Assembly: GCA_016800925.1 (NCBI GenBank)
Contig: JABCPU010000247.1
Location: forward strand, 1 to 64,000
DNA from: Suillus spraguei
Taxonomy: Eukaryota; Basidiomycota; Agaricomycetes; Boletales; Suillaceae
Direction: 5' to 3'
Length of the DNA: 64,000 nt
Within the stretch, counting starts at the first letter, position 1. Each line of letters begins with the position of its first letter. Under the pieces are notes generated by a model. That model ran no database searches and was not told the origin of the DNA. It was given only the letters and a program-made list of their open reading frames with translations. Both the position numbers and the translations under genes were made by a program. Shown piece after piece: positions 30,737 to 51,211 of this stretch.

Positions 30737-31237
30737 CATGTTCGCGCAGAACGTTGTTACGAAAACAATAATAAAGGTATATACAATCCTCCACAGAAGA
30801 AAGAATAGTCATAAAACACCCTGTGGGACCATCATACATTTCTTTCAACTTTTCTACCTGAGGAGGTAAATTTAAACCTGGCATCCACCAGACACAAAAT
30901 TAGTCAAATTTAATGCTCACGACGGCGACTAGCGATGATGCCAATGCACAACGCATAAATTACATAACGAGTGAATACTAGCCAAGTAGGAACAAGAAGT
31001 CCATATGTCGATCGACCATGGAAGATACCAAAGTTGTACATTCCGTCAGTATTTACGAATGCAGCAGACGTAAATATAAAAGACGAGAGAAATGATATGA
31101 TGTACAGAGATTGACTAACTAAAGCACATCGACAAAAGCCTTGTTCGCGTCGTTGTTCAGGTCTGTGAATGCCAGTTAGTTCATATCTCTACCGCAAAGT
31201 TGCACAGGCACGTGCCAGGACTTCAGTCACATTATCA
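30737..31237. other. 3' flank of secreted module gene copy 1, with relic exon
   Basis: On the minus strand downstream of the stop of copy 1, an acceptor-like TTCACAG near 31182 precedes a frame reading DLNNDANKAFVDVL and a stop (about 31139-31181). It looks like a former last module that is now beyond the stop codon. Confidence 0.5.
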
Positions 31238-31577
31238 TCACGCGGGATGTGAGGCAATCTCCTGACGAATTTTATTCACATCGTCCCGGAGGTCTGGAAA
31301 ACCTTAAGCGGTGAACTGTGAGCTAAAGGAAATGTCATACCAGTGATGACTTGAAGGATACTATCACACTTGTGGATTTCAGCGAAAGCGTTGTCTAGTT
31401 CCTGGCCCACTTCTACGTGTGCAAGTTAGTTCATATTTCTATCGCAAAGTTGGACACAGCCTCACGTGCAAGGATTTGAGCCACATCCGAGTCATTAAGG
31501 CCACCGCGGCGCAAAGAAGAGGCAGCGAGAGAAACATTGCAGAGGACAGCCATAATTGCTAAGTGAGTGAGCTGCAT
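31238..31577 (-). CDS. small secreted phase-1 module protein, copy 1
   Basis: Three exons encode 79 residues. Exon 1 (31466-31577) gives a signal peptide MQLTHLAIMAVLCNVSLAAS followed by LRRGG. Two module exons follow, with junctions all in phase 1: QVGQELDNAFAEIHKCDSIL and DLRDDVNKIRQEIASHPA, stop. The same exon layout and intron sequences occur in copy 2 (33.5-34.3 kb). A TATA box lies 82 bp upstream. It is probably extracellular; function unknown. Compared with copy 2, the Lys-Arg of the first module is replaced (HKCD versus LKRD), and only one exon pair is present. It could be a drifting paralogue losing function. Confidence 0.7.
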
Positions 31578-31657
31578 AGTGAACGGGGGACTTTCAATCT
31601 AAACGATGGTCAACTTGGCCTGAGGACGGATGAACATCAAAGGCCAATATGTGACGG

Positions 31658-31665
31658 TTTTTATA
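31658..31665 (-). promoter_or_regulatory. TATA box of module protein copy 1
   Basis: TATAAAAA on the minus strand, 82 bp before the start codon, inside a block conserved with the copy-2 promoter (GCTAGCTATAAAAACCGTC). Confidence 0.65.
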
Positions 31666-33473
31666 GCTAGCATCGAGTATGTGCAAGTTATTATCTCCAG
31701 TCCAAATGGAATATCATAGCGACCACCGGTTATAGTTCTTCGAACTAGAAGCTGGTCTATCGGCGGTACTTACTTCACAGTAAGTAGTACCATTCGTACC
31801 TTATTTGCAAGGTCATGAGTATGCTATGTCGAAAGTTCTGGTTAATCGCCGAGGCCGAGCACTCGATATACAAGCATTGAGAGTCTTCGACAGTTCGAGA
31901 ACACTATAAGGGTGCACAATAGAGGGGATAGAGAAGATTAATAGCCTGCAAGCTATCATCATGCTACTGAGTACGTTGATTAGTTATGATGTCAAGTTAT
32001 CGACGTGACGACGCTTATTACCTTCGAAAGGTCACAGTACTGTAGCCTAGTAGAATCAACTCAATAACTCAGGCCTGTGACATGTATGTGATACGTTGGA
32101 TTATTACAGCGCTGCTAGAATTCAAAATTTGGTACTGCAGGCGCGGATGCTGGACTCGGAGGGTCGTATATCCTGATATTCTGTAATTTCGACTGTGACG
32201 CGTGACCGTACATGTAGGTCACGGGTTGCCTGGAGTTACCATCAAGCCAAGTTGCCAACTATATCCGCCCAAGGCCATCTTTTCTATTACAACTTGAACT
32301 TGCTGAAACCAAAACTCAGTCTCAGTCTAGCAGTACTGTCAAGCATCCATGTTCAGTTACTTACACCGATATAAAGACACAGGAAGTGTCGGGCTACACT
32401 CAAGCCTGGCCGCAGGCTGCAAGCCACTGGTAGACCCTTCCAAATGCCGTGTCGTCGCGTTCGCCGATCAGCAATCCTTCGTCTGCGGCCTACGTAAAAT
32501 TTTGGGTTCAATGACGCGTGCGGTCGAGTGTGGTATGAGAATGACTTTAACAGGTAGCTACATCAATGAGGAACTGAAGTAGGCAATTTTGCGCTGGGAA
32601 CGTTTGATCATGAAACGTTATGGGGAACATAACATGACTTACCACTGCACACACCGGACGAGAGATACTTATGTCCGACTCATCAAAAACACATACAGGA
32701 GCCGTACGAAGCAGCCTCAGTGGATTGAGGCTTGATGGTATCCGGAGTCTGGAGTTACAACCCACACGGGCCGCCTGTGGCTGTGGAGTCTCGACCCTGG
32801 AGTTTCTTGTCTAGCCTTCAATACCAGGAGTCGCATGACCCTTTTCTTATGATCCTTCCGTAGGATTCCTGTATGCAAATACGGGGTATCACTGCGGCTC
32901 TCACCACGAGCGGATGGAGCTCTGGGGGAGCCATCCATTTAGCCACACCATGACGACGCCGCGGCCGCCTCGCTAGGAGAAGTTGAATATGAAACACCAT
33001 TTAAAATTGAGCACGTTCACGCAGAACGTTCTTGCGAAAACAATAACAAAAGTATATCCAATCCTCCACAGAAGAAAGAAGTCATGAAACACCCTATGGG
33101 ACCTTCACGCATTTCAACTTTTCTACATAAGGTGAGTTTCACCCTGGCGTTCATCGGACACAAAATTGTTGAACATAACTCTGATGACGACGATTAAAAA
33201 TGACGCCAATGCATAACGCACAAAATACTAGTTGAGTAGTAGCAAGAAGTCCATAAGGTCGACCGACAGTGGAAGACACCAAATGTTCGTCACGGGTATA
33301 TTCGCAAATTACATGAATGAAGCAGACATAAAAGTGGAGGCCGAGAGGTAGAAATGATGTGATCGACTAGCTAAAGCACATCGACAAAAGTCGTGTTCAT
33401 GTCATTTTTCATGCCAGTCAGTCCATATTTCTACCGCAAAGTTGGACAGGCATATGGAAGGACATCATTATCA
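31666..33473. other. promoter of copy 1, duplication junction and 3' flank of copy 2
   Basis: No gene is supported. It contains the distal promoter-side part of duplication unit 1, the junction near 32.72-32.79 kb and the downstream flank of copy 2, where a relic frame ends in FVDVL and a stop near 33.37 kb. Confidence 0.45.
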
Positions 33474-34325
33474 TTACGCAGGAGGTGCGAGAATCTTGAT
33501 ATCAAGACCATTTAAATCGTCCTGGATGTCTGAAAAACCTTCAACGGCGAACTGTGAGCTGCAGGAAATGCCATACCAGCGACGATTTGGGCGACATCAT
33601 CACGCTTCAGAATGTCGACGGAGGCATTGTTTAGAACGTGGTCCAGATCTACGTATACAAGTCAGTTCATATTTCTACCGTGAAGTTGGACGCGCACATG
33701 CAAGGACTTGAACCACATCATCATCGTCACTACGCGACTGAGGTGCGAGAATCTTGATATCGAGACCATCTAAATCGTCCTGGATGTCTGGAGAACCTTC
33801 AGCGGCGAACTGTGAGCAGAAGGAAATACCATACCAGCGACGATTTGGGCGACATCATCACGCTTCAGAACGTCAACGGAAGCGTTGTCTAGAACGTGGT
33901 CCAGATCTACGTACACAAGTCAGTTCATATTGTTACCATGGAGTTGGACACGCACATGCAAGGACTTGAACGACATCATCATCATCGCCACGCGACTTGG
34001 GTGTGAGAACCTTGATATCAATATCATTTAAATCGTCCTGGATGTCTTAAAAACCTTCAGCGGCGAACTGTGAGCTGAAGGAAATGCCATACCAGCGACG
34101 ACTTGGGCGACATCATCACGCTTGAGAATGTCAACGGAAGCGTTGTTTAGATCATGGTCCAGATCTACGTATGCAATTCAGGTCATATTTCTACAAGAAG
34201 GTTCGAGTTTGACACGCACAGGCAAGGACCTGAATCAGATCGTCAGAGTCACCGCGGCGCAGAGAAGGGGCAGCGAGAACAACACTGCAGAGAACAGCGA
34301 AAGGTACAAAGTAAGTGAGCTGCAT
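33474..34325 (-). CDS. small secreted phase-1 module protein, copy 2, with triplicated exon pair
   Basis: Seven exons encode about 185 residues. The signal peptide MQLTYFVPFAVLCSVVLAAP is followed by SLRRGDSDDLIQVLA. Three exon pairs follow. The first exon of each pair reads YLDHxLxNASVDxLKRDDVA; the second reads DIQDDLxxxDIKxL, then (first two copies) a linker with SRxDDDDVVQVLA. The last pair ends ILAPPA and a stop. All junctions are phase 1, so exon pairs can be multiplied without breaking frame. Each pair contains one Lys-Arg. The genomic period is exactly 258 bp. No Cys remain in the mature part. Function unknown; secreted by signal peptide. Confidence 0.82.
33480..34250 (-). repeat. 258-bp tandem repeat (exon-intron-exon-intron unit, three copies)
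   Basis: The landmark CTTGATATC (plus strand) recurs at 33495, 33753 and 34011, spacing 258 and 258 bp. Each unit includes two short exons and two introns of the copy-2 gene. Units are about 85-90 percent alike by eye. Confidence 0.9.
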
Positions 34326-34381
34326 AATGGATAGGGGGAAACTTCAAGGGCTAATGAACAATAAAGGTCAGGATGTGACGG

Positions 34382-34389
34382 TTTTTATA
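34382..34389 (-). promoter_or_regulatory. TATA box of module protein copy 2
   Basis: TATAAAAA on the minus strand, 57 bp before the start codon, in the promoter block shared with copy 1. Confidence 0.65.
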
Positions 34390-36756
34390 GCTAGCATCGA
34401 TTGAATATGTGAAGACTGCGGTCCGAATGGAACATCATGGTGACCACGAATTACAGTTCTTCGAACGAGAAGCTAGCCTATCGGCGGTACGTGCATACCA
34501 TTCGCACCCTGTTTGCAAGGACATATGCAATGTCGAAAGTTACGCCGCACAAATGGTATATCCCGAGAAGTCCTCGAGAACACCAGTGTGCAAAACGATT
34601 TGAGAGAAGGTCAGTGGCCTGCTCATCATGCCACGTCACACAAGTGACGAGTCAAATAACCCAAGGTCCACCTGCGACTGCACTGCATACTATTAAAGTA
34701 AGATTTGCGTGATTTCGCTCGTGATTGCCATTGCTCACCGAGGCGTTCAATGGATCTCGCACTTACATGGCATCATACACTTTTGCTAGAGACTGAACCC
34801 ATCCGTAGTACGGTTTGTTTCTGCACTTTTTTTTCAATTGACGTTGACACCACCTTGATCTCAGGGCGATCCACCCTGGCAGCATCAGTCAGATAAGTAC
34901 TTATCAGCTTCGAAGGGTTGTGACGCACCCTGATCTGTAGATCACGTGCTGACTGGAGTGTTGCAACTTCGGATTGATGCGATACAACGGTCCATCACGG
35001 CATACCGCCTAAGGCCATTTCTTTGTCTTTAGTAATATTATGTATTTCAAGCTGAAGCCGAAACTCACTATAGCGGCGTCAAGCATCCATGCTCAGTTCC
35101 GCTGGTATAAATGTCAAGCCCGCATAGCTGCTTCGGCTGAGAGCCAATAGCTTTACCAGCAGACCCCCTCCTGCGTTCTGGGGTCACCCTTCAAAATGCC
35201 GTGTCGTCGCGATCACCAATCCTTTGCCGGCGGCCTACGTAATTTTTTTTGGATTTAATGACTCGGTCGGGCATGGTGTGAGAACGACTTTAATAAATGG
35301 CCCAGGACCGGAAGTGCGCTGAGAATGTTCTTTTTTGATTATGGGGAACACGGCATGCGACCTACCACGGCGCGGCATCGGACGAGAGACACTTGCGTTT
35401 GACTCATCAAAAACAGATAAAGACGCTGGCGTAAGCCTAACCTCTGCATTCCTCTGCATGAGTTATGAGTTATGTGGCTCGTCAGTGATCTTCAGTGTTG
35501 CCATTGGAAATTCACATACAGGAGCCGTACGAAGCAGCCTCAGTGACCGCGGAAGATTGGAAGATGGAAAATATATCTTTCAGCAAAATCCAGCCATGTA
35601 TGATTCTTGATAGAATATATTATTATTTTCTGGCCGAATATAAAGCGGGTTAGTACACCATCGCTTCTAGATTTCTACGCACCGAACAGACCATACTGGT
35701 CAAGGGCACCGAACTTCTTGAAAGATTTGTTCTGAATGGAAGCTGATTATCCCGCTGATCGCGGCGAGCCCAACTAAGCATCTATCTTCGACTCCCACAG
35801 TAGGGAGGGTATAGGGTCAACGTGCCTCAAGGGGTGACAGAGTTCGGAACCCTCCACAATACACACGGCCCATCTCCAATGTTCAGCCGACTCGAAGAAT
35901 CCACATGGGTCGTATGGCAGTAATTTGAGGCGAGATCAGCCGTTTACTGTGTACCAGTGCCTGAAATTTGCCAAGACTGACAATTGCAGTGACGAAAAAA
36001 AGCTTTCCTGTGTAACGTTGAATCCTGCGCACGAAATGATAGGCTCTGAATGCGCTCGACATATACTGACGTACCCTGGACGTTGTAATTTTAATTTTCC
36101 GTGTTGCACTAGGGTCCATCGCCCTTCACGCATACCGGAAACGAGTGTAGTATATCCTGTATAAGTAGAATGCAGTGGATTACTTACATGCTATAAACTC
36201 CTGTGGCTTCGTGAACTAGGCCGAAAAAAATGTTGAGGTTTGTGTTAAGAAAAGGAAAGGTTCAGGACAAGTTATCATGACACAACACTCATATATGTAT
36301 GTCAAACGAACCAACAATACAGTTCTTCGGGCAGCGGGCACTAACAGGAATCAGAACTCTTCAATGTAAAGAACGACTCCCTTCCTTTTCCCCTAAGTTT
36401 GGCTAGACGAAATTCAACAGAACTGGCGCAGATGAAATTAAATGTCACGTACCTCGTCGGTGTACGTGTTAGAACCGAACAAACTCTTAAGCAGAGTATG
36501 AGCCGACGGACTGACCGAACACCAATCTTATTTCACAGCTTGAAGTGCAAAAACATTCAGTCACACACACGCACAAGGATGGGAGCTAGAATCTCGGAGC
36601 GGTGCATAATAAGAATTACCATCCAAGCACGAAGCATTGAAATATGCGTTGTAATATACCCTCCAACTACCACAGGAATAGGATATCTGCCTTACTATCT
36701 GGGAGACAAACATTTACATTTTCAGTTCATCATCTTGGAACGGTCCAGCTGCTGAC
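34390..36756. other. no supported gene
   Basis: Up to 35.55 kb it is the distal part of duplication unit 2. From 35.6 to 36.75 kb only short frames without recognisable products are seen. Confidence 0.45.
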
Positions 36757-38120
36757 TCACCTCCGCACACTGTTTTGAATGTCTCCCCATCTCAAGTTTT
36801 GAATGCCTTCACCCTCACGTCCGACACGTCGTGGCCCCATGATGACGCTGTCGTCGAGACGCTCTAGTCGTAAAATTTCACGGCGGATGTAGGAGACAAG
36901 TGTGACCATAAGTTCTGGGTAACCGATATATCTGAAGTAGGGACAATTAGTAAGAAATGATACGCAGCATTGACGCATGCGCATTGAGGAAGTGCCAGAA
37001 GGAATAATACACATACCGGTCATTTTCCGAAGGAGCAAAGTCATGCACACCACTGTTGTCGTCCTTCAACTCCTCCTTGTCTACGTCCAATTTTCTCACA
37101 TCCTCCACAAGTCCACCAACCAGGTTGACCGCTCTCCGATAACTTTTACCGTCGCCCTCCTGGCCCAACCCAATCCCACTTGCACCCCGCGCACCTAATA
37201 AATTCCTCCAAACTGCTGCAGCCATCTCAGCATCGCCCCTGACGAGGCCAAGGTCCAAAGTCATTCCCATCCCAGCCCATTGCTCTTTCAAAATTTTCAT
37301 TTGCCTGGTGATCAACTTTTCTGGTGCACGAGAGCGCTTCTGGAGTTTTACGGCCTCTTGATAGGCTTTGGTTGAAGGAAAGGTGCTTTTAGGCGCAAGG
37401 GGGGCAGGCGTGGTGTAAAATGAGCTGTGTGGATAAGGTGAACCATCTTCTGCAGCAGCACTAGATAAATTTGGTGATGAAGAACGAGGAGGCAGGACGC
37501 CTGGTTGGAGGACGGCGCGCAAGCGTTCCTCGACATCCTGAAAGAAGTGGTCAATGAGCCCTTGCACATGATGTGTCCCGTGTGGTGCAGGGAGGGCACG
37601 GAGTCGGACAGTGAGCAGCCAGACATGCAGATTCGTGACTGTAAACCAGGACTGGAAAGTTGGCGGGAGAGCGCATTCTTACTTAGGAATTAATTAAGAT
37701 TCACATAAAGTCGCTGGGCATACCTTCTGTCCAAAATGCAAAGGCTTCATCAGCACGCGTGGCACATAAGGTGTTGTACAAGAGCAGCGCACGCCGATTA
37801 GCAAATTGTTGTGGCGAGCCATAGCCAAGAACGCGTGCTACAGAGAGGAATATTGAGAAAAGGAGTGGAGATGACTTGACTTTCGTGGTCAACCATGACT
37901 GCTCCCGCTGTGGTGTGGGCTCGGAAGACGGGGGGGGAGGTGTCGAGGTCGGTGTCGGCTTCAGCTTCGATGCAGCCACTGCCGAGCGCGTGACTGAAGA
38001 TGAAATTACGCGCACATTTCTGTGCACTTTTAGAGGAATATTTGCCCTAACTTTATGATACGCCCTAACTTGGTGAGCTGAACGAACAACTTGACGGACG
38101 AGAAGTTGTTGTGAAGACAT
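36757..38120 (-). CDS. CBP3: ubiquinol-cytochrome c reductase assembly chaperone Cbp3 (UQCC1)
   Basis: Mitochondrial chaperone that, with Cbp6, binds the mitoribosome exit and newly made cytochrome b for Complex III assembly. Exon 1 from ATG 38120 starts MSSQQLLVRQVVRSAHQVRA, an Arg-rich presequence without acidic residues. After a Pro/Ser linker comes LLYNTLCATRADEAFAFWTE. Exon 2 gives the family hallmark ECALPPTFQSWFTVTNLHVW, LTVRLRALPAPHG and LIDHFFQDVEERLR, then a Ser/Pro insert, LITRQMKILKEQWAGMGM and LDLGLVRGDAEMAAAVWRNL. Exon 3 gives YIGYPELMVTLVSYIRRE. Junctions are in phase (G|AA and CG|A). The insert between LR-AVL and LITRQMK (about 65 residues) is longer than in yeast. Complete gene. 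Confidence 0.93.
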
Positions 38121-38925
38121 GGAGACCTTTCGAGCAAACTGGTGCTCCACAACAAAATATTAGCTTATGTAAGCGACGATCTTCCACTTCACCCGGCCGC
38201 GGCAACGTTTCCCCAGCAGTCACTAGTGGGATTACAACACAGTATGTTCTGACCAAAAAACAAGTGATAGGTTCGTGCGCTATAACGGTGACGAGTTCGT
38301 GGCTCACTCATGGTATAGCATCATGACACACATCGGTCTCGTCATGGACCCGAACACGCCAACCTCGTTGTACAAGGTTTCTACCGGTCCATCAATGCCA
38401 TCATTGTCCGACCTTGTCGTGGCAGATGCTTATGAGAATGTACTATTGTCTAGTCAAACTAATACAAGGAATTAATCAAGGTAACATCATTATTATATTA
38501 CAGCAAGCCTTATTGTGCAACTGTTACGAGTAACGCGCAGCTGTGCTAACGAGGATTATTGGCACCGCACCTCAAAGGCCATACCATCAAACGTGAGGCT
38601 GCCCGCCTGCAAACATCAACATGCAAGCGTTCATCACGGCATATGGTGACCAGAATCCGTTCATTGTTCTGATGAGGACAAATTCATGACTTCGATCAGG
38701 GATCGGATCGAACAGCGTAAGGCTAACTCCGAGGACAGAAAACCTACGGGCAACTGCTTTATGTTCTACAAGTATAATTTTCACTAAAGCCTTTTGATAG
38801 CAAGGAAACTCCATTACGCGGCTATGTATTACGGATCCTAACGAATGACAGTGATAAACGAAGGGCAAGTTGCGCGCGCAACGTCGGGTATGAATATGAA
38901 GAGCCCCCTCTAGAGATAGTTAACC
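38121..38925. other. intergenic, no supported gene
   Basis: About 0.8 kb between the CBP3 promoter and the 3' end of the secreted module protein copy 3. Short frames only. Confidence 0.45.
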
Positions 38926-40230
38926 TTATGTTGATGCAACTGCGATGTTTGCGTCGTTGGCAATGTTCTCGGCAACTATATTCGACAATTCAGTAGATCT
39001 TCATGTTGTGACCATGACACTACCTACCAACAACGGCCTTGACAACATCGCGCTTCAGGGGAGGAATGGCCGAGCCAATAAGCGAGTTCGTGGCGCCATC
39101 GAAAAGGAACATGAGGTCATTTGGGTTGGCAATCTCTCCGTCCGCCGAGCGCGACGACAGAACATTGAGATCGAGGTTGTTCAGGACGTTCGTCACAAAA
39201 ACGTTGAGGCCAACAAGATCACATGCGCCACGGGAACTCAACACGTTGATGTTCGCGTTGTTCAACACGTTACTTATGACTGCATACTCATTAGACTGAC
39301 GATTACGGAGTACAACAGTGACTTACCCGCAGTAACATCAGCAAGTGAGCAACCCTCGAATTGACCGCGCTTGCCCTTGGAGCTGATAGCATTGATGTCT
39401 GCATTGTTCAACACGTTGTCAACCACTGTCAAAACATTCAACATTTGAATTGATCCCCTAGAGAGAAGCACCTACCAACACCAGCATTGACAACATCACG
39501 CTTTACCCCAGAGGTAATAGCATTGACCTTGAGGTCGTCCAATACATCGGTGACCACTGTCAAAACAATGAACTTTCGAAACAACAATCGACAAGAAAAT
39601 ACTCACCGACACCAACATCGGCAACTTGACGCTTAACGTTGGAGCTCAGAATATTGATATGGAGATTGTTCAATACGTTCTGGACGACTAGTAAAACGGT
39701 AAATATTTGAACCAGTAACTGAGAAGGAAATTCCTACCAGCGGTGACACCGAGAACGTCACAGCCACTACGCTTCGTCGACAAAATGTTAATAGTCGCAT
39801 TGTTAAGGACGTTGTTAATAACTTTTCAGTGCCGATCAGAACTGACCTCGACCAAAAATAAATAAATGACTTACTAGCGTCGATTTGGATGACGCTGCAT
39901 CCGTAGTCGTAACCTCCGGACTGTTGTTCGAATCCTTTGACGACATCATCGAACGCTAAAACATTATTCTGGTCAACATTGCCGACTGATCATCAAATAT
40001 TTCATGCTTACAGGGAGAACCGCCACGAGCTGAGATGGCGTTCAATTTGAGGTTGTTCGCGTCATTTGTGACAGCTACAACAAAGGCTCAGTCAAGAAGC
40101 TGGACATCACATGAAGAGCTAACTTACCGACAACAGCGCCAACGACGTCGTTGGAAAGGGGAAGGGGCGATGCTAATGCAGGAGCAACAGCAGCCAAAGC
40201 AGCAAAGAGCGCAAAGGATTTAGATAGCAT
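38926..40230 (-). CDS. secreted phase-1 module protein, copy 3 (eight-module, Lys-Arg containing)
   Basis: Nine exons join without a break to about 300 residues. Exon 1 gives the signal peptide MLSKSFALFAALAAVAPALA then SPLPLSNDVV. The following exons each begin and end in phase 1 and encode one module: VINNVLNNATINILSTKR, VVQNVLNNLHINILSS-NVKR, VVTDVLDDLKVNAITSGVKR, VVDNVLNNADINAISSKGKR, VISNVLNNANINVLSSRG with fused VFVTNVLNNLDLNVLSS, and a terminal short module VAENIANDANIAVAST. Five modules carry Lys-Arg after the hydrophobic stretch, in the position expected of Kex2 cleavage. Two Cys pairs may exist (Cys in modules 1, 4, 5 and the YDYGCSV exon). Probably extracellular or wall-associated; no known domain recognised. 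Promoter has a TATA box about 110 bp upstream. Confidence 0.88.
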
Positions 40231-40338
40231 ATTGGCAGTGGGGGGCGATTGAAGGAAGTAGGGATGACGTGCGCAAAGGAAGGGCAGAACGAGAATCGAA
40301 GACGAGCAGTCTGAAGTTGGATGGTTTGAGCACCTGTA

Positions 40339-40345
40339 CTTTATA
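40339..40345 (-). promoter_or_regulatory. TATA box of module protein copy 3
   Basis: TATAAAG on the minus strand about 110 bp before the ATG at 40230. Confidence 0.5.
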
Positions 40346-40925
40346 GTGCAAGACGAGCTTACCGAGATTCGGTCTCATGGATAAGGTCCCGAGTAATACG
40401 AACGGCCATTTGCCATAAAACAAAGAAGCAAAAGAAAAACTAAAAGGAGTTGTAATGTTTGTGGTGAGGGATGTCTCTCTACCAATCAGATTGCTTGTTT
40501 AAACGTAAACCTACGTAAACTCAGCATGAGGGCTGATCGGCTTTTATGCAAGCCTAGAATGCATAATTTTTTAGACCGCGCCACTGATGGACTATTCTCG
40601 AGAATTTTTTTAGTAAAACACTAAAAATCATGGAAAAATAGTATATGATACGTTTGAGGGCATAATAGGCCAATCATCTCCAGAGCCCTCGGTTGGTGTA
40701 GTGCGCCCACCCTAAGTGCGGTGAGCACGATCCCTCGCACCTCCGAGCTAAAAAGCTATGCGTCCATACTAAATATTGACAGATAAATGCGGCAGCTTTA
40801 CGAGAAATAACGTGATAGAGAACCAACGTTCTAAGCGGTAGCGACGGAATCGATCAAGTCGAGTACTACTAGGTACGACTTTACGACTTCTGCAGTACGT
40901 ACTTTTTGCTCGTTTCCTTGACGCC
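40346..40925. other. intergenic, no supported gene
   Basis: AT-rich DNA with a short GC-rich island near 40.68-40.75 kb. No gene supported. Confidence 0.4.
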
Positions 40926-41530
40926 TGCTTATGACACCAACTTGACCTCTTTTGACGATTGGTATTATCATGCGCCGCATCCTGGTGTGCACATCATCAT
41001 CATCATCTACCTCAAGGTATCAACAAATCACACCGGAGTATTTTGATTTACTCGGATCAGAAAGGAAGCTGATCAGCTACCAAGTAGAATGGTCAGAAAA
41101 ACCGGATAGAACGTACGTACCGAGTTACCAAGCCAAATTCAGCCCGAGTTCATGATGCTTCTGCGAATAGCAATAAATGGTGGGTGTTCACGATATTTTC
41201 GCAATGAATAATAAAAAGTAATTATTCGGTTTTAATATCGACAGAAACAGACAATGAAACCCTCCAGCCTACTGCCTCCTCATGACACATATTACTTACC
41301 AGGAATATTTGTATATCCCCATGTGAGTACACAGTGCAAACTGCAATCGTTCATGTACTTCATGGCTCGAAGATGCCATTCTCTCGCCGAAATCACCACT
41401 TCGAACGAGTACCGGAAATGCTGCGGGCGACTTCGGACTTAAACTTAGCTGTATCTTGCATGTACATCTAGGTCACTTGCATCGCCAAGCCTCCTGTTTC
41501 CATTCGAGTCTCTGATATGAAGGATTGAAT
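40926..41530 (-). pseudogene. cytochrome P450 3' fragment with downstream flank (third copy)
   Basis: This stretch repeats the 3' end and downstream flank of the two P450 copies to the right. Shared landmarks are GTGCAAACTGCAATCGT near 41330 (compare 42094 and 44744), GGCTCGAAGATGCC and CATTCGAGTCTCTG near 41500. Only the last part of the gene is present; the catalytic part is missing, so it is a fragment of a duplication unit. Confidence 0.7.
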
Positions 41531-42214
41531 CATTGGTTGTCTTCATCTTAACCTGCACGAGTCAGTGAACTACTGAAAATAATACCAATTATGAGGTATT
41601 CGCCTGCCATGACTGAACGCAAAATCTGTACGTACTTCAATCGCCTGTTTCCTTGACGCCGATTGCACTCTCGCAGGCTTATGAAAATAACTTGACGTCT
41701 TTTGTTGATACCAATATTAAATATGCGTCGCATCATGTGCATGACCCTTCAAACTTCAAGTTATGAGCATATGATGATCCTACCTATTTAGATTGATCAA
41801 GTTGTGTTGTATATCAACATATCACATCGGTGTATTTTAATTTGCTCCTTGTGGGAGGAAAGGAAGCTGCTCAGTTACTCGGTCGCTCAGTAATATGGCA
41901 AAACGTACGCATCAAATTCAGCGTCAGTGCATGATGCACGTCAATAACAATGATGGGGATTCACCAGATTTTGGCAATGAATGATCAGTGTATTATTATC
42001 ATTTTCAATATCGACAAAAACAAACCACAAAACCTCCGGCCTGGGCCTCCTGAACATTTGTATTTCCCGTGTGAGTACTCGATGCCACGCTGCAAACTGC
42101 AATCGTCTACTTCAAATTCATCATCGCTCGAAGATGCCCCTCTCTCGCCGAATTCACGACCTCGAACGAGTATCCGAAAGGCTGTGGGCGACTTTGGACG
42201 TAAAGTTAGACCAC

Positions 42215-44230
42215 TTACATCACCAAGCCGGTGGTGATTTCCGGCTTGATCTCAATTATGTCTCCGTTCGAGTCTCTGGCATGACTAATGCGCAAGACAG
42301 CCAGTATGGCGGCCGTCGCAGTCCACAGACTGTTATCTACAAACCTAAATCATTAGTTATCTTACCAGGACGAACGCGCCTGTACGAATCAGTGAGCGAC
42401 TGAAGACCATACTAATTGTGAGGTATTCATCTGCCATGCCCAAAGGCAAAGTGGTGGACCAAATGGACCTTCAGCTGCCCTTCGGCCGTGAAATGGCGAG
42501 TGGGATCGAAGCGTGATGCATCAGGAAATACGTTTTCGTCACGAGACAGTGACCTAAGTCATGCTCAGCCGAGCATTTAGGCACACTGCATCTTACATAC
42601 CATTGATTGACCATCACCATCGTACCTAATTGAACTATAGATCACTCAATGCAACTCTGATTCATATGACGAACCTTTGGGTATAAAGTACCCGTCGTAA
42701 ACATCATCATCTGTTGTCACATGAGCTACTCCTGTGCAAGCAGTTAGCTACATAATTGCGTAAACATCAAGGCACATCGCTTGACCAACCTAAAGGAAAA
42801 TGAGAATACCATCTTAGAACTTCATAGAGAACGGCATCAAGGTAGGGTAACGATGGTCTATCATCAATAGACGGCATTTTATCGTGCATCACGACTTGAT
42901 CAATTTCTGCACGAGCCCTGGCTTGGACATCGGGATAAAGCATCATAGCCATTGAGAATATGTGCAATGCAGATGTAGACTGAGGGACACCAAGGTAAGG
43001 GAAGAAGTGATAAAGATTGCCTAAACCAATGACTCACTATGTTTATGCCCGCTAGGACACCATGTCCGCATCAAGTAATGAACCCCGTGTCTTGAAAAAA
43101 AACAATTACCTATGTATCCCATCAATGCCACAGCTTTCATTGTGTCTTCATCAGCACCATGGCCAGCTTGGCTGAGAAAGCCGGTGACTAATGATTTCGA
43201 AGCAGTGCCATTTGCCTGCAGGTAAGTAGATCATGTAAATCAAATCTTCCATCAGCGGTGATAAAACGTACCATCCGTGCCTTCACCTCGTCGAATGGCT
43301 CATCTAAAAGCTGTTGACTTAATTCTCTACAGCGCCCCATCAGGGCATGGGCACCACCAAAACACCAATCTGGCAGCCTTTTCACTGCAAGTGACCGACA
43401 TGCCAAAAGTTCAAATCAACGTCATTGATAGCATTGGCGTACTCACGGAAAAGAAAGACCGTGAAGATGGCAGCCTTCTCCGGAGAAATAAGATGTCTCA
43501 CAATATCCAAGAGTTCTTGCGTACGCGTAAAGAATGGGTCTTAAGGTGTCCATATGTCACAGCCATAATCAGTGATGCCGTGTATCTGTGACAGTTATGT
43601 GATTGTCAGCTGGGTCGGATGTTACAATATCAGGGACGAACGCTTGAATGGGTTCCTGTAGGTCACCGGTGGCTTTCAAAAGATCGAACATTAGTTCATT
43701 CGCGTGACGAGAGTACATATGAGAAAGAGGCTTCAGCCCTAAGGACTTGATGAAATATCTTGCGATATTGCCGCAAAGTCTCGCCATACCAGTATTGAAT
43801 CCGATCTACCTCGTCAGCCAATCAAGAATAGGCCGGATGAAAGCAAGACGTACATTTCACTGGTGGGAATGACGGGGGGTTCCGAGAATTGTAGAACACT
43901 TGTCTATTGACTCCCGTGCAATTGACTCAGAGTTTATGATGATCATGTCAATCCCAAGGATGCGAGCATGGATGATTTTGCCTAAGAAAAGGGATAAAGT
44001 TAAATCCAAGGGCGTGAAAAGTTGATCCACCCCCCATATGTCTTTCCCCATGTACTATATGTGGGCCAAGGTCGTTTGATGTCCAATTGCAGCGCATTAC
44101 CCAGGAATGGTAAACCACGAGGGCCAGGCGGCAGAGCCAAAGGGTGAACGCGTCTGCGGCTCAGACATAAAGCGGCAATCAGAAAAACAACTAACGAGGT
44201 TACTGCAGCGAGAATACGAGCAGAGAACAT
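42215..44230 (-). pseudogene. cytochrome P450 copy A (heme-Cys lost)
   Basis: Microsomal class II P450 of the basidiomycete type. The first exon from ATG 44230 gives an anchor helix MFSARILAAVTSLVVFLIAA, basic CLSRRR, and the hinge LPPGPRGLPFLGN. Then come LGIDMIIINSESIA, KSLGLKPLSH, an I-helix-region exon, YPDVQARARAEIDQV, YLDAVLYEVLRW (ExxR region), FPDASRFDPTRHF and HFAFGHGR, and the end DNSLWTATAAILAVLRISHA. Lesions: the exon after GHGR starts RRVRPG, so the heme-ligand Cys codon TGT has become CGT (Arg); the preceding intron donor is GA instead of GT; and the exon after SESIA runs out of frame compared with copy B, where IYSDRPVIP is kept. It cannot bind heme as read. Confidence 0.85.
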
Positions 44231-44886
44231 TGGGAAAGATCATTGTTGACTGAGACGTTCGTTCGCCTTATAAGGGGGTCCTTGACATCCGAAGATCGGA
44301 GAGCTACTTGCACGAATAGGGATCCTGAAATTCGCGCCAGGTAGTACCTATCGAGCGCTGATGTACTCATCCAGTCAACGTCCATTGCTGAAAACCTGGA
44401 GTCACTATGTAGGCTATTGACAAATCCACACTCTCGACTCAGAGCTGCTGTTTAGCGAAGTCAGGATCAACTGCGGAAGATTTGGTGAGTTTTTCTCAGT
44501 TGTCTGAATTCTTGTTGTTGAATAGCATACATATTTTAGAAACATGCTACTCAACTGCTGGTTGCTTGAAGCTATCAAGACTGCAATTTGGAACTTCGTT
44601 TTCTTCATGGGCATGTAGTACCAACTCGCAGTGCTACTCTTCTGATCGAAATTTATAGCGTATATAGCGATACCACCGGGTTGAAAACCTCCGGCCTGGG
44701 CCTCCTGGACATTTGTATATCCCGTGCGAGTCCTTGATGCCACGCTGCAAACTGCAATCGTCCACTTCAAATTCATCATCGCTCGAAGATGTCCCTCTCG
44801 CTGAATTCACGACCTCGAACGTATCGGAAAGGCTGTGGGCGACTTCGGACGTCAAGTTAGATGTATCTCGTGGACATCTAGGCCAC

Positions 44887-46844
44887 TTACATCACCAAGC
44901 CGGTGGAGATTTCCGGCTTTACCTCGATCATGTCTCCGTTCGAGTCTCTGGCATGATCAATACGCAACACAACGAGTATGGCAGCCGTCGCAGTCCACAG
45001 ACTGTTCTCTACAAACCAACGACCTGCCGGAGAGGACAAACGCGCCTGTACGAGTCAGTGAGCGACTGAAGATGATACTGACTGTGAGGTATTCACCTGC
45101 CATGCCCAAAGGCAAAGTGGTGAACCAAATGATCCTTCAGCTGCCCATCAGCCGTGAGATGGCGAGTGGGATCGAAGCGTGATGCATCAGGAAATACGTC
45201 TTCGTCACGAGACAGTGACCTAAATCATGCTCAACTCAACCATTTAGGTGCATCGCATCTTACACACCATTGATTGACCATCACCATCGTACCTAATTGA
45301 ACTATAGATCAATCGACGTAACTCTGATTCACACGACGAACCTTTGGGTATAAAGTACCCGTCGTAAACATTCCTGTGCAAGGAGTTAGCTGTAAACACT
45401 GAGGCACGTCACTTGACCAACCTAGGGGAAAAGGAGAATGCCATCTTAGAACCTCATAGAGAGCGGCGTCAAGGTTGGGTAACGATGGTCTATCATCAAT
45501 TTTATCGGGCATCACGACTTGATCAATTTCTGCACGAGCCCTGGCTTGGACATCGGGATAAAGCATCATAGCCATTAAGAATATGTGCAATGCAGATGTA
45601 GACTGCGGGACACCAAGGTAAGGGAAAAAGTGATAAGGATTCCCTAAACCAATGACTCACCATGTTTATGCCCGCTAGGACACCATGTCCGTGTCAAGTA
45701 ATGAATCCCGTGTCTTGGAAAAAAACAATTGCCTATGTATCCCACAGCTTTCATCGTGTCTTTATCAGCACTGTGGCCAACTTGGCTGAGAAAGTCGGTG
45801 ACTAATGATTTCGAAGCAGTGCCATGTGCCTGCAGGTAAGCAGATCATGTAAATCAAATCTTCCATCAGCGGTGATAAAACGTACCATCCATGCTTTCAC
45901 CTGGTCAAACGGCTCGTTTAAAAGCTGTTGACATAATTCCCTACAGCGTCCCATTAGGGCATAGGCTCCACCAAAACACCAATCTGGTGGCCTTTTCACT
46001 GCAAGTAACCGACGTGCCGAAAGTTCAAATCAACGTCATTGATAGCATTGGCGTACTCACGGAAAGGAAAGGCCGTGAAGATGGCAGCCTTCTCCGGAGA
46101 AATAAGATGTCTGGCAATATCCAAGAGTCCTTGCGTACGCGCAAAGAATGGGTCTTAAGGTGTCCATATGTCACAGTCATAATCAGTGATGCCGTGTATC
46201 TGTGACAGCTATGTGATTGTCAGCTGCCAGGTCAGATGTTACGATGTCAGGGGCGAACGGTTGAATGGGTTCCTGCAGGTCACCAGTGGCTTTCAAAAAA
46301 TCGAAGAAGTTTATTCGCGTGACGAGAGTACATCTCGTGGTATGAGACAAGCTTCAGCCCTGAGGACTTGATGAAATATCTTGCGATATTGTAGCAAAGT
46401 CTCGCCATACCGGTATTAAATCCGATCTACCTCGTCAGCCAATCAAGAATAGGCCGGATGAAAGCAAGACGTACATTCACTGGTGGGAATGACGGGGCGA
46501 TCTGAGTAAATCGATGAACGCTTGTCTATTAACTCCCGTGCGATCGATTCAGAGTTTATGATGATCATATCAATCCCAAGGATGCGAGCATGAATGATTT
46601 TGCCTAAGAAAAGGGACAAAGCTAAATCCAAGGGCGTGAGAAGTTGATCCATCCACCATGTCTTTCCCCACGTAGTATATGTGAGCCAAGGTCGTTGGCA
46701 TTTAATTGCAGCGCATTACTAATGGTAAACCACGAGGGCCAGGCGGCAGAGGCAAAGGGTGAACGCGTCTGTGACTCAGGCGCAAAGCGGCAATTATAAA
46801 AATAACAGCGAGGTCACTGCAATGAGAATACGAGCGGAGATCAT
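44887..46844 (-). pseudogene. cytochrome P450 copy B (anchor frameshift)
   Basis: Second copy of the same P450. It retains the heme-ligand Cys (RRVCP) with an intact GT donor after FGHGR, LGIDMIIINSESIA with SSIYSDRPVIP, and DNSLWTATAA-type C-terminal sequence. The start ATG (46844) opens MISARILIAVTSLLF and then meets TAA within the membrane anchor, where copy A reads on; a short deletion explains it. After VCPLRQ the frame into the last exon is also disturbed. Loss of the membrane anchor and the C-terminal break make it a pseudogene, decayed at different sites from copy A. Confidence 0.82.
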
Positions 46845-46850
46845 TGGGAA

Positions 46851-47862
46851 AGATCATTGTTGAGACTGAGGACGTTCGTTCGCCTTATAAAGGTGGTCTT
46901 TGATATCAGAAGATGAGAACTCGGATCCTGGAGATCACCAGTCACCACTTGCACGAATAGCGAAACTTTTAGGACAGAAGGCTATAAGTCTTTAGGAAGA
47001 CGCTTAGTTTTGTAGATAGTAGTGCGTTGACAATAGGCGATACATAGTTCCTAAAACATATATATGCTATTTATACTCCGATACTCCGAAGTTCCGCTAT
47101 GCTCGACTCGTTACTCTCAACAGGAAACTCACGCTAGCGCTGATGTACCAGTCAACGCCCATCGCTATAAACAATTAGCAACCATAAGCTAAGTTGAATT
47201 GAATAAGCAATGTTATCGCATCGAATACCTAGGGTATCGATCTGAGACATCTGCACCACCACAATGACAAACAATTGGATTGTCATAAAGTGAAGATACC
47301 AATCGTCTGAGCGCTCTGACGCTGTTATAAGATGATTGTACATAACCCAACATCGTACTGATCACTCCCGGAATAGGTTTTGTCGCTGTCCAAAGAACTC
47401 GAATCTGTTGGCACAAGAATATCGGTGATCGCATTGGTCGATGCGGCTTTGTTGCAGGGATCTTGTATAGATGACCAAACTCACTCTGCATCGCGAGTAG
47501 ACGATTAGCATCATATTCTCACATTCAACTGTATTGCTTACCCATCGTATCAACTACGAAGGACTCAACCTCTTTCGTACAATCTATCATCACTCAAAAC
47601 AACACGCGTTTCATGCCACTCAAGACCAGTGATAGACCACAGTGGACCACCTGTCAAAATCGGCAGTCAAAGAGAGACGAACAAAGACACATGCCACTAG
47701 GTTTGCACACTGACCCATTACAGGCACTGTGGATGGTCAAACGCGCCAAAGCCGTCCACAGTGCTTGGGATATAAAGATGCGCCTCGCAGTATCTATGGG
47801 AGTCACCACAAATCCCTCACGCCGTCTTGCGTGTTTCATCCTTGACTCCAGTCTTGCAAACT
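46851..47862. other. intergenic, no supported gene
   Basis: AT-rich region with a C-terminal edge of the P450 promoter on the left and the upstream region of the 47.9-kb gene on the right. Only short overlapping frames are seen. Confidence 0.4.
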
Positions 47863-48812
47863 ATGGAAAACATACCCATCCAAACAGTCATAACGCGCTC
47901 CGGTAGCGCTACTTCAACGAGTATCAGCAATGCTTTGGTACCCTCTCCCACAGACAGACTCACTCCAGCCGAGCGTAAGGCCTTTGGCAAATCAGATAAC
48001 AAGGCTGCCAAGATCCTCGGTATTACACTCACACGCAATCATGTGGACCAGGATGGGAGACTTGCTCGAGTGCTATCTGCAGATCAAGAGAATCCCCAAA
48101 TTGGCAACACCCTAGGAGAGATGATGGGTCTCATAGGAGCGAAGCGTGCACGTAGCCGTAATTCAAGCGTCTTTAGGCCACGTAAGGGCCCACAACTTGC
48201 TTCAGGTATGGGGATGGACTTGGTAGAGAGGAACAAGAGGCGCAGAGTGGCTGGAGAGTATACGCAACGCGTGATCTTGGGACCCTTGCGCTCTAACGGG
48301 CCACTGCCGAGGAAAGCGAAGAATTACCGACTACCGTCGGCGACGACAGTGCATGCTCGTTCTTGGATCCTAGTGACATTGAGGAGACCGAAACACCTCT
48401 AGCAGAAAATAATGAAGAAGAGCTGGAAGATCTATTCGACAGTTCAAGAGGCTTTGTTTGGGACGTCCAAAATCCGTTTGCCACGCCTCCCAATACCGTC
48501 CTTCAGCAATATGTCAAAGCAAGGCGGCTTGGTGACACGATTGGGCCCTTTGATATTGCGCCGGTGGCATCGTCCTGCTACACAACTCCATCACCCGAAG
48601 AAGCAATTCCGGCACTCCATTCCGATGACTCGTTCAACGACATACTTTGTCCGGCGGAACGAGCTTACTTGGATTTTTTGATTGCACAAGACGAAGCTGA
48701 GGAACAGCCAAGGGAGAAGAGAAGGCAAAGAAGAGCGGCGGTGCGGTCGAGGAATAAAATGTTGGATGTGTTAGGAGCGGAGGCACGACAAGCTATCGAT
48801 GGGCAATGTTAG
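47863..48812 (+). CDS. conserved-looking acidic/basic protein of unknown function
   Basis: Two exons, 47863-48270 and 48312-48812, give 302 residues. The 41-bp intron (GTGATC...CGAG) contains the branch site CTCTAAC; without it the second frame (open from about 48295) would be out of phase. The N-terminal half is basic, with RLTPAERKAFGKSDNKAAKI, LGITLTRNH and RNKRRRV (possible nuclear signal). The C-terminal half is acidic (NNEEELEDLFD) and Ser/Thr/Pro-rich, ending REKRRQRRAAVRSRNKMLD, a charged segment that may be helical. It has no signal peptide or membrane helix, so it is probably nuclear. I do not recognise the family; a securin-like or chromatin-associated role cannot be judged from sequence. 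No neighbour hints at function. Confidence 0.82.
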
Positions 48813-49796
48813 CCTTCTGTTGAAAATGTATAATTACTATAATATGCCTATATATTCAATCACTGTAATGACAGAGACTCGTGCTTTGAAGGAGACGCCG
48901 ACGAGTTGTGGGGAAGACAGGCGAGCGAACAGAGCTAGGTACGATCTCAACTTCTATTCAAGAACTCATATTAATATTAACGTGCTTTGTACCTAGTAGT
49001 CACGCTAGTCAGCTAATGCTAACGTACAGGAAGGACTTGTCTCAGCTTCTATTCAAGAACCGAGATGTTCATATGTTACGGCGCTTGAAGTGAACAAGGA
49101 ACAAGATAAAACACAACTCGTTGACATACATCAGCGCACCGCTGCCCATTTGGCCTGCGCTCGGACCACTGTCTCTCCCTCGTACCTATCTCGGATCGTT
49201 CGGCCTTTTTCCTCTCTCCCTTGTCCGATTCTTCAGAGTTCAACACGAGTCGTACTCAGTTGAACCGCTTCAAGTTAGATTGGGACCAACTGGCTTGAAG
49301 CTTGAATTCGGCAGGGAGTCACATGACATGTTTAGCATCGGCGTTAAGTCAAGTCTCAACTCTCTTAACGCCGCAAAACGCCGCAAACTCGGATGCAACA
49401 CATTGCCTCAAACGCGTCCCTCTCGACTATAGTATTCGTACCGTACATCTAACTTCAAGTTATATTCGTCACCATATCCATATCTCCCTAACACAGCCCA
49501 CAGAGCACCGCGTAACACTTTCCTTTGTTTGCAGCGGTAATGATATAAATACAGAAATTCCCTAATTTGTCCACTGACCGGAAAATCGTCCTACACTTCG
49601 AATCTTCCATATCAAAGGAAGCCGTCAGTAAGTAGTACCGCCAAGTTCGAATGGAAGCCATCTATCTTTGGAATCCGGAGAGCGGTCATGGCATCACTTA
49701 CGAAACAAAAATTAGCATATAAGTGACCTACTCCGCACGTCCGATTTAACGTTCCCTTACCTCAGATCTCCTACAGAATTATCATCAAAGAGCAGA
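48813..49796. other. intergenic, no supported gene
   Basis: Short frames only; no recognised feature. Confidence 0.4.
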
Positions 49797-50130
49797 ATGC
49801 GCATTTCAGCTCTCCCCACACTCTTTTCCAGCTTTTTTCTTACTGAGATGGCGTTTTGTATCCCTTTATTGACTCCAGGTAGGGGTTATGCTCCTGATAC
49901 CCGTGGTGAGCTTCTTTTTAAACCATTTCTTGATTATGGCTAATATGTTCATGTTTTCGCTTACGATCTTGAAGAAATTCTCGGTTTACAAAACATCCGC
50001 ATCATGGACGTTGTAACTAGCCCTATCGGAATATTCCTAGGGGAGTTGAGCATGCCAACCTTGCGTGCAATGCAATTGCAGATAGACGATTATTGTTCCA
50101 AATTTCCGTGTCCTATGCCAAGTAAGTGTG
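49797..50130 (+). CDS. possible small secreted protein (low confidence)
   Basis: ATG 49797 opens MRISALPTLFSSFFLTEMA, a possible signal peptide, and reaches TPGRGYAPDTR before a GTGAGC donor. After a plausible intron ending GAAG (about 49978), the frame continues EILGLQNIRIMDVV and IGIFLGELSMPTLRAMQ up to SKFPCPMPSKCE and a stop near 50130. A longer Cys-containing frame follows (about 50128-50343) that would need an implausibly short 28-nt intron. Single copy, no known family; could be a chance frame. Confidence 0.3.
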
Positions 50131-50767
50131 AATAAGCTTATTTGTCCAGAGCTCATAAGCAATACCCAGGAGGGACATCCGAAATTTAATATTTGCATCA
50201 GACAGCAAGAGTTGTCCTCGCGGCGTTGCAAGACTTTCAATCGTATACCCTTCGAATTGTTGTATCTCTGGCAGGCATGCTATGTTCCAGTCTATCGTTG
50301 TTGTTCTAACATTTCAAATTATTTGCAAGTATATAACATGTAACTCAAGCTGGAGGAGTTTGTTTGCCTCACATAGTACATTGAAGTTACTCGTGATATA
50401 GGACAACAGGCCGTTGTAGTTTCTTGCACAAAATTCTTTGTTGCACAGCTTATATTATACCTATTACCAGCCATTGGAAGGCCTTACTTTCACCTTAATG
50501 GAAACGAACACTTGTCTTCTCGCTACCTACCAACTTGGGTCCTGCGCCGTGTCATGAAAAGTGTGATAGTCGCAAGTGTTGATACAGACTGATCAATCGT
50601 AGTTATCGTACAGCCATTGCTTAATAACACAGAGCGCATATGTGGGTGTTATAGCGACACTGCATGCAACTGTATCTGCTTAACAAACCTATAACAACAA
50701 TCGGCGGAAAGCTACCAGACTAAGGAAATCTGGCGTTTCACAACTCGTCGGATGAACCGGGCATCCT
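50131..50767. other. no supported gene
   Basis: Only short frames; 3' flank of module protein copy 4 at the right end. Confidence 0.4.
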
Positions 50768-51211
50768 CTACTGACTCATCACACTTATGCTAACATTGTT
50801 CAGAAGGTCATCGACATCTGAATGAAATACCATCAAATACTAGCCACCAAATTGGATAAAGACGGTACTGACCAACATCAATGCTAACCAGGCTGCTGTC
50901 ATCGCGCTTTTGGCTGAGGAGATCGACAACATCTCCGATGAAAGATTTAGCTAGGAGGGACGCCAAAATAGATAAATGCCTACTAGCGTCAATGTTGACT
51001 CTAACAATCAAGTCATCATGTTGATCCAAAGCATTCACGGTACGGTTGTTGAGAATATTGGCAATTACTGGACCACATCATCAGTAAGGAAACGGGCAGT
51101 TTGACGCTCAGTGAACTCACATACACTCACATCACGCTTCGTAGGTGAGGCAGCAGCACAGGCGACAATGTTGAGGGCGCAAGCGAGAGTAGCAACGGAG
51201 TGGAACAACAT
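50768..51211 (-). CDS. secreted phase-1 module protein, copy 4
   Basis: Four exons joined in phase 1 give 92 residues. Exon 1 is the signal peptide MLFHSVATLACALNIVACAAA followed by SPTKRDV, with Lys-Arg just after the cleavage region. Then come IIANILNNRTVNALDQHDD, NVVDLLSQKRDDSS and the terminal DVDDLLNNVSISVMSQ, stop. It is the shortest full member and shares the LLNN-xxx-xVL/M pattern and the exon phases with copies 1-3. Two Lys-Arg sites are present. A TATA box lies about 100 bp upstream. Isolated by 10 kb from copy 3; not in a recognisable segmental duplication. Confidence 0.78.

What the first reader, a model, noticed from the sequence alone, without database searches (positions are those of the whole stretch)
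31238..51211. Family of small secreted proteins built from symmetric phase-1 module exons
Four genes (31.2-31.6, 33.5-34.3, 38.9-40.2, 50.8-51.2 kb, all minus strand) share one architecture seen directly: an N-terminal signal peptide, then short exons of 15-35 codons, all beginning and ending in phase 1, each encoding a variant of a VxxxLNNxxxNxLS module. Phase-symmetric exons allow free duplication and loss of modules. I know no named family with this combination; it may be an undescribed basidiomycete secreted repeat family.
Basis: partly seen in the sequence, partly recalled or inferred. Interest (0 to 1): 0.78.

Follow-up and report, generated by a model that had tools for sequence, protein, structure and literature searches.

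The report
Fungal precursors cut into repeat peptides
A pine-symbiotic mushroom carries a small family of secreted precursor proteins that look built to be cut into several similar short peptides, and the gene's exons are staggered so that most peptides are encoded by two neighbouring exons; the class is known, this lineage-specific family and its exon layout appear undescribed.

Summary
Four minus-strand genes with leader-like N-termini, 19 of 19 introns in phase 1 and repeated V..NVLNN..INVLS modules are in the window. Phase-1-only splicing gives 7 and 9 exons for the two large genes, against 1-2 for phases 0 or 2; 0 of 100 shuffles score as well. The host is almost certainly Suillus spraguei: my 7-exon model of gene B equals a deposited protein of that species letter for letter. 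The interpretation needs correcting. [quoted passage not shown] No Pfam model reaches its cut-off; 18 of 18 relatives with an organism name are Suillus or Rhizopogon. The exon is a staggered copy of the peptide: KR sits mid-exon, and 20 of 20 KR-bounded fragments behind the first site in five genes cross an exon junction. Units are copied with their introns (87-98% alike in B and E). Best reading: KEX2/KEX1 release linear amphipathic peptides that act outside the hypha, perhaps surface-active like Ustilago Rep1. Processing is well supported by sequence; function is inferred. Genes A and D are marginal or decaying.

The parts
33474..34325 (-). Gene B: KEX2-type repeat precursor, 185 aa, 7 exons (34325-34220, 34164-34093, 34045-33956, 33906-33835, 33787-33698, 33648-33577, 33529-33474), all introns phase 1, three KR sites
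   Evidence: identical to S. spraguei protein P0020
33482..34189 (-). Tandem 258-bp units of gene B, each two exons and two introns; 450-bp block 90% identical at distance 258, starting inside intron 1
   Evidence: intron identities
38926..40230 (-). Gene C: KEX2-type repeat precursor, 297 aa, 9 exons (40230-40128, 40074-40012, 39955-39875, 39821-39738, 39687-39607, 39556-39476, 39425-39327, 39279-39028, 38975-38926), all introns phase 1, five KR sites
   Evidence: relatives P0001-P0018
39028..39279 (-). Exon 8 of gene C, 84 codons, two modules without an intron between them; paralog E exon 7 has the same two-module fusion, and P0036/P0037 run through the corresponding place without an insert
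31238..31577 (-). Gene A: short tandem relative of B, 79 aa, 3 exons, no KR, modules diverged; probably decaying
50768..51211 (-). Gene D: short diverged relative, 94 aa in 4 exons (or 3 exons if intron 50983-50933 is retained), two KR sites, one of them at the end of the leader
31119..31162 (-). Remnant terminal exon behind gene A (ends FVDVL-stop), cut off by an earlier stop
   Evidence: read by eye
33371..33410 (-). Matching remnant behind gene B, acceptor site not recognisable
   Evidence: read by eye

Best explanation
B and C (with paralog E on contigs C661/C236) are KEX2-processed repeat precursors of Suillus; A, D and paralog F are short or diverged relatives. Each has a secretion leader followed by repeats of an amphipathic module with Lys-Arg between them. 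In the Golgi, KEX2 would cut after KR and KEX1 would trim the basic residues, releasing linear, mostly acidic peptides: 23-29 aa for 9 of 12 fragments in C and E (the others 43, 56 and 88 aa), 25-52 aa in B. The gene evolves by tandem copying of exon-plus-intron units. Because the introns are all phase 1 and KR lies inside the exon, gain or loss of a unit keeps both the frame and the cleavage register. Shown: the gene anatomy, the excess and spacing of KR, the duplications, conserved intron places. Inferred: cleavage and secretion (about 0.85). Inferred more weakly: the peptides are surface-active and coat hyphae or contact surfaces, like Ustilago Rep1 (about 0.4), rather than acting as signals to pine roots (about 0.3).
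For: KR counts against shuffles: B 3 vs 0.31 expected (1 of 2000 shuffles reach it), C 5 vs 0.29 (0 of 2000), E 7 vs 0.43 (0 of 2000). KR/RR-bounded fragments resemble each other: one fragment of C is linked to all five others, 7 of 8 fragments in E and 4 of 5 in B are linked (z above 4). Of 36 database relatives (P0020, gene B itself, left out), 33 have a fragment similar to at least two others; several of the 36 are near-copies of each other. Junction geometry: 20 of 20 KR-bounded fragments behind the first one in B, C, D, E, F cross a junction, 16 exactly one, always 7-13 residues into the fragment, and 4 two. Introns copied with exons: B introns 2/4/6 87-94%, 3/5 88%, E introns 4/5 98%, shuffles about 50%. 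Constraint in B units: dN/dS 0.70, 0.34, 0.28 over 41 codons. Splicing: five relatives carry six read-through inserts, all starting with Gly and within one residue of C junctions 1, 2, 4 or 7, while short contigs (983 bases for 258-aa P0005, 927 for 227-aa P0024) hold the uninterrupted frame. A kexin P-domain gene is present on two contigs 99.8% alike. Only 2 of 254 KR/RR sites are followed by XA/XP, and none of 45 UstYa matches lies on C422, C661, C236 or C113, so linear peptides are expected.
Against: No peptide or RNA was measured. A has no KR, and D and F do not reach three similar fragments. The C fragments are diverged; I did not apply the published 70% identity (Vogt), FIMO (Le Marquer) or 0.6 repeat (Umemura) tests exactly. 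The exon models of E and F come from a program that allowed phase 1 only; for E the other phases were tried, for F not. Crossing a junction is itself likely for fragments about as long as an exon; the constant offset is the firmer fact. The two alleles of E differ by 4 amino-acid and 1 silent change, which does not speak for constraint. Both AlphaFold2 models (relative P0007 and gene B) are poor (mean pLDDT 37 and 42), so a surface-active structure has no firm support. The hydrophobic periodicity test was weak (p 0.03 and 0.10) and partly imposed by the motif used to collect the 132 modules.
Confidence: 0.8

Rival explanations
1. The modules fold together as one secreted repeat protein (a solenoid or adhesin-like rod), and KR merely marks exposed loops.
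For: Module length and hydrophobic pattern are regular; both AlphaFold2 models show strand-turn-strand for most modules. In C exon 8 two modules lie in one exon without KR between them.
Against: Models have mean pLDDT 37 and 42. KR recurs between modules in most relatives, which a stable rod would not need. No solved structure matches the C-family profile (best E 1.3).
Confidence: 0.12
2. The released peptides are symbiosis effectors or signals acting on pine roots rather than hyphal-surface material.
For: 18 of 18 named relatives are in Suillus and Rhizopogon. Suillus species switch on species-specific small secreted proteins with pine hosts (PMC5065116, passages). The Kex2-site protein MiSSP8 is needed for mycorrhization in Laccaria (PMC7329392, passage).
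Against: No expression data for these genes were available. The peptides are amphipathic and diverse within one precursor, unlike the near-identical copies expected of a receptor ligand.
Confidence: 0.3
3. Precursors of cyclic RiPPs of the dikaritin type.
For: Same precursor plan: leader, repeats, KR (PMC9769878, introduction).
Against: None of 45 UstYa-domain matches listed for the genome lies on the four family contigs; cores of 23-88 aa are longer than I recall for known dikaritin cores.
Confidence: 0.03
4. Decaying repeat sequence without function, the phase pattern being a by-product of tandem duplication.
For: A and D are short and diverged; remnant exons lie behind A and B; paralogs on C1202, C1020 and C313 look truncated; the E alleles show 4 amino-acid against 1 silent change.
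Against: Open frames over 9 exons in C and E with relatives across Suillus and Rhizopogon; dN/dS below 1 in three of three B unit comparisons (not independent); transcript-like contigs of relatives.
Confidence: 0.05

Closest known systems
KEX2-processed repeat proteins (KEPs; PMC6339444, PMC7329392, PMC9769878)
   Same: Leader, several similar fragments between KR sites, almost no STE13 motif, lineage-specific sequence.
   Different: Introns inside nearly every repeat, all phase 1, staggered against the peptide. In the main text of the two surveys the words intron, exon and Suillus do not occur; the third paper mentions introns once, for cDNA cloning. Their supplementary lists were not seen, so single Suillus members may already be listed there.
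Ustilago maydis Rep1 (repellent precursor; described in PMC4617103, passages)
   Same: Amphipathic imperfect tandem repeats separated by Kex2 sites, released as short peptides.
   Different: Rep1 repeats are 34-55 aa and its peptides form amyloid-like fibrils experimentally; nothing of that kind is shown here, and no sequence comparison with Rep1 was made.
MiSSP8 of Laccaria bicolor (mentioned in PMC7329392, passage)
   Same: Small secreted protein with Kex2 sites in an ectomycorrhizal fungus.
   Different: No sequence comparison made; expression in symbiosis is unknown for this family.
Class 1-1 exon-shuffled modules of Metazoa (PMC8001218, passages)
   Same: Symmetric phase-1 exons in secreted proteins, duplicated in frame.
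   Different: A fungus; the exon is out of register with the functional unit; duplication within a gene, not demonstrated shuffling between genes.
Schistosome micro-exon genes (PMC8293314, passages)
   Same: Proteins exposed outside, lineage-specific, many symmetric exons.
   Different: Internal exons here are 60-252 nt rather than up to 36; exon skipping is not shown; repeats carry KEX2 sites.

Membership tests
KEX2-processed repeat proteins | N-terminal signal peptide | tested here: inconclusive
   Hydrophobic leaders ending in small residues are seen by eye in A-F; no predictor available.
KEX2-processed repeat proteins | At least four fragments at KR/RR, at least three of them similar | tested here: met
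   B, C and E meet it by my own alignment z-scores, not the published programs (B counts a 3-residue piece behind the leader as its fifth fragment). A, D and F do not meet it.
KEX2-processed repeat proteins | Repeats cover at least 15% of the protein and are at most 100 aa | tested here: met
   Fragments behind the first are 23-88 aa in B, C, E; 25 aa times 3, 5 or 7 copies is 40-58% of the protein by my arithmetic.
KEX2-processed repeat proteins | A KEX2 protease in the organism | tested here: met
   P-domain PF01483 on C925 and C1201, 99.8% alike over about 3.2 kb.
KEX2-processed repeat proteins | Released peptides detected | not testable with these tools
   Needs mass spectrometry.
Dikaritin RiPP precursors | UstYa (DUF3328) gene close by | tested here: not met
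   45 matches listed for the genome (a lower bound), none on C422, C661, C236 or C113.
Alpha-pheromone-type KEPs | STE13 dipeptides XA/XP after the cleavage site | tested here: not met
   2 of 254 KR/RR sites in the window genes, E, F and 36 relatives.
Hydrophobins | Hydrophobin domain | tested here: not met
   No hydrophobin family among Pfam hits at E up to 1 for A-D; relative P0017 bears the name Hydrophobin in one source but has no precomputed domain.
Rep1-type repellents | Surface-active amyloid-like assembly of released peptides | not testable with these tools
   Amphipathic pattern only.
Class 1-1 exon modules | All module exons flanked by phase-1 introns and duplicated in frame | tested here: met
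   19 of 19 introns in A-D; unit duplications including introns in B and E.
Class 1-1 exon modules | One exon or exon set corresponds to one functional module | tested here: not met
   Exon and KR-bounded peptide are out of register.

The most novel reading that the evidence does not exclude
The stagger is used as a combinatorial peptide generator. Most peptides join the tail of one exon to the head of the next, and all exons are phase 1, so skipping or recombining an exon makes a new peptide with an intact frame and intact KEX2 ends. Suillus would thereby vary its secreted peptide set by splicing or by rapid unit turnover between species, a fungal parallel to the exon-module shuffling that a review calls restricted to animals.
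Probability: 0.2. Interest if true: 0.78.

Novelty: new variant of a known kind. Interest (0 to 1): 0.5.

Why it matters
It places an unnamed Suillus/Rhizopogon secreted family into a class with a testable mechanism, and predicts exact peptides to look for in mycelium and mycorrhiza. It also gives a fungal case of symmetric phase-1 module exons in secreted proteins with duplication events still visible in the introns, relevant to the published question why exon shuffling is restricted to Metazoa and favours class 1-1 modules (PMC8001218, passages).

Tried and rejected
A first, phase-free gene finder read through introns and was discarded; that script also failed to read its locus files. My first exon coordinates for B, C and D were off by a few bases and were corrected. 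Pfam and NCBIfam gave only hits below their cut-offs, for example a Pfam 'KR' ketoreductase hit to B at 20.6 bits against a cut-off of 22.6. AlphaFold2 on a 15-sequence and a 5-sequence alignment was poor, so no fold search was run. A profile search of solved structures gave nothing (best E 1.3). A hydrophobic-moment test suggested a helix-like first half and a strand-like second half, while AlphaFold2 suggested hairpins; neither is strong. Nine paper searches were made; judged by titles and abstract starts, none lists a description of this family or its exon layout, but most listed papers were not opened. One search (Suillus with Kex2) listed two papers, each naming Suillus once, which I did not open. 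Supplementary lists of the KEP surveys could not be read. I noticed no isoform with a skipped exon among the relatives, but the database is clustered at 90% and no dedicated test was made.
Full report
What was checked. The four genes were read from the minus strand and exon models were built and corrected. A has 3 exons, B 7, C 9, D 4. All 19 introns are in phase 1 and 47-56 nt long. A splice-chain program restricted to one phase, with a generic donor table, explains B (7 exons, 186 codons with stop), C (9 exons, 298) and paralog E (9 exons, 301) only in phase 1; phases 0 and 2 give one or two exons. Of 100 dinucleotide shuffles each, 0 reached the real phase-1 score for B, C, E and D, and 1 for A; for D the margin is thin (18.8 against 18.3). 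Gene D is uncertain in detail: its second intron ends in GAG and is open when retained, and the program chose 3 exons for it.

Host and independent support. The model of B equals protein P0020 of Suillus spraguei letter for letter, so the window is almost certainly that species; it forms ectomycorrhiza with white pines (PMC5065116, abstract passage). C alone found 19 proteins at E up to 1, a 15-member profile 31 at E up to 0.1, B five: 37 distinct proteins. 18 of them carry an organism name: 15 Suillus and 3 Rhizopogon. The rest come from environmental contigs or bear no organism. In the two C-family searches only about 8000 candidates sharing most words were scored, so absence elsewhere is not proven. 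Two contigs (983 bases for a 258-aa frame, 927 bases for a 227-aa frame) are shorter than such a frame plus seven or eight 50-nt introns, so they are probably transcripts. Five other relatives carry six read-through inserts of 16-21 residues, each starting with Gly as a phase-1 GT donor behind G would give; all six lie within one residue of C junctions 1, 2, 4 or 7. Together these support splicing and conserved intron places, short of RNA data for the species itself.

The modules are separated by Lys-Arg. Counts against composition shuffles of the sequence behind the leader are 3 vs 0.31 for B, 5 vs 0.29 for C, 2 vs 0.12 for D, 7 vs 0.43 for E, 2 vs 0.16 for F and 0 vs 0.13 for A. Fragments between the sites resemble each other in B, C and E. 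By the published criteria that I could imitate (PMC6339444 section 24; PMC7329392 section 13; PMC9769878 section 14) B, C and E qualify as KEX2-processed repeat proteins; A, D and F alone would not. I used my own alignment scores, not the published programs. A kexin P-domain gene is present on two contigs that are 99.8% alike. The peptides lack the STE13 signature (2 of 254 sites), and no UstYa gene lies on the family contigs (0 of 45 listed matches), so plain linear peptides are the expectation.

The staggered exon. In C a typical peptide is SGCDVLGVTA^VVQNVLNNLHINILSSNVKR, where ^ is the intron. KR lies inside the exon and the intron a few residues into the peptide. In B, C, D, E and F, 20 of 20 KR-bounded fragments behind the first one of each gene cross a junction: 16 cross exactly one, 7-13 residues behind the cut, and 4 cross two. 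I left out the first, leader-bearing fragment of each gene, and A, which has no KR. F and D rest on less certain models. The exon is thus a circularly permuted copy of the peptide.

How it grows. In B, a 258-bp unit of two exons and two introns is repeated; introns 2, 4 and 6 are 87-94% alike and introns 3 and 5 88%, where shuffles give about 50%. The repeated block starts inside intron 1. In E, introns 4 and 5 are 98% alike at a distance of 133 bp (one exon plus one intron), but that block starts within an exon, so not every duplication is bounded by introns. In C the introns are old (46-65%). S. luteus P0007 lacks a 54-residue stretch, about two modules, that S. decipiens P0001 has; C has the P0001 arrangement by eye. 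Remnant terminal exons behind A and B (by eye) show loss as well. Selection: B units give dN/dS 0.70, 0.34 and 0.28 over 41 codons, while the two E alleles differ by 4 amino-acid changes and 1 silent one, with 6 differences in 408 intron bases; neither is decisive.

What it probably does. In B, C and E 15 of 16 released fragments are acidic. The common core reads V.AVV.NVLNNL.INVLS, an amphipathic pattern. Rep1 of Ustilago is cut by Kex2 into amphipathic peptides that form fibrils on hyphae (PMC4617103, passages). I hold a similar surface role slightly more likely than a signal to the pine root, for which Suillus' species-specific secreted proteins give general support (PMC5065116, passages). 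Neither is shown. AlphaFold2 models were poor and no solved structure matches.

Novelty. The class is known. The window proteins reach no Pfam cut-off. The intron-per-repeat layout and Suillus are not mentioned in the main text of the two surveys (words intron, exon and Suillus: 0 occurrences each) and the third paper has one unrelated mention of introns; my nine paper searches listed no description. The surveys' supplements were not seen. I rate it a new variant of a known kind. A review asks why exon shuffling is restricted to Metazoa and why class 1-1 modules prevail (PMC8001218, passages); this family is a fungal case of class 1-1 units duplicating within a gene, which bears on that question without contradicting it.

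Noticed in passing
L043 512-1822 (G000:C661) and L044 552-1862 (G000:C236): Paralog E, 9 phase-1 exons, seven KR sites; the two contigs look like alleles (5 coding and 6 intron differences). The kexin gene is likewise on two contigs 99.8% alike, so the assembly may hold both haplotypes.
   Followed up: partly
L045 553-1302 (G000:C113): Paralog F, related to B, about 6 exons and two KR sites; behind the model lies a stretch that by eye resembles the remnant terminal exons of A and B.
   Followed up: partly
L046 801-1517 and L047 839-1606 (G000:C1020, C313): Mosaic gene: upstream stretch like that of A and B and a copy of B intron 2 with its flanks, a truncated leader, joined by a phase-1 intron to a long SYGSSNND repeat exon; the two copies differ in repeat length and reading frame.
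   Followed up: partly
L048 454-880 (G000:C1202): Short gene whose first two exons resemble paralog E and then diverge, possibly truncated.
   Followed up: no
G000:C536, C969, C1213: Clusters of UstYa-domain matches, candidate dikaritin-type clusters in this genome.
   Followed up: no
window 3468-8549, 27094-27681, 56827-57282, 60448-60930: By eye from the ORF list (recalled, no search run): a voltage-gated calcium channel, a BUD32-like kinase, a PDR-type ABC transporter and an oxoprolinase-like frame.
   Followed up: no
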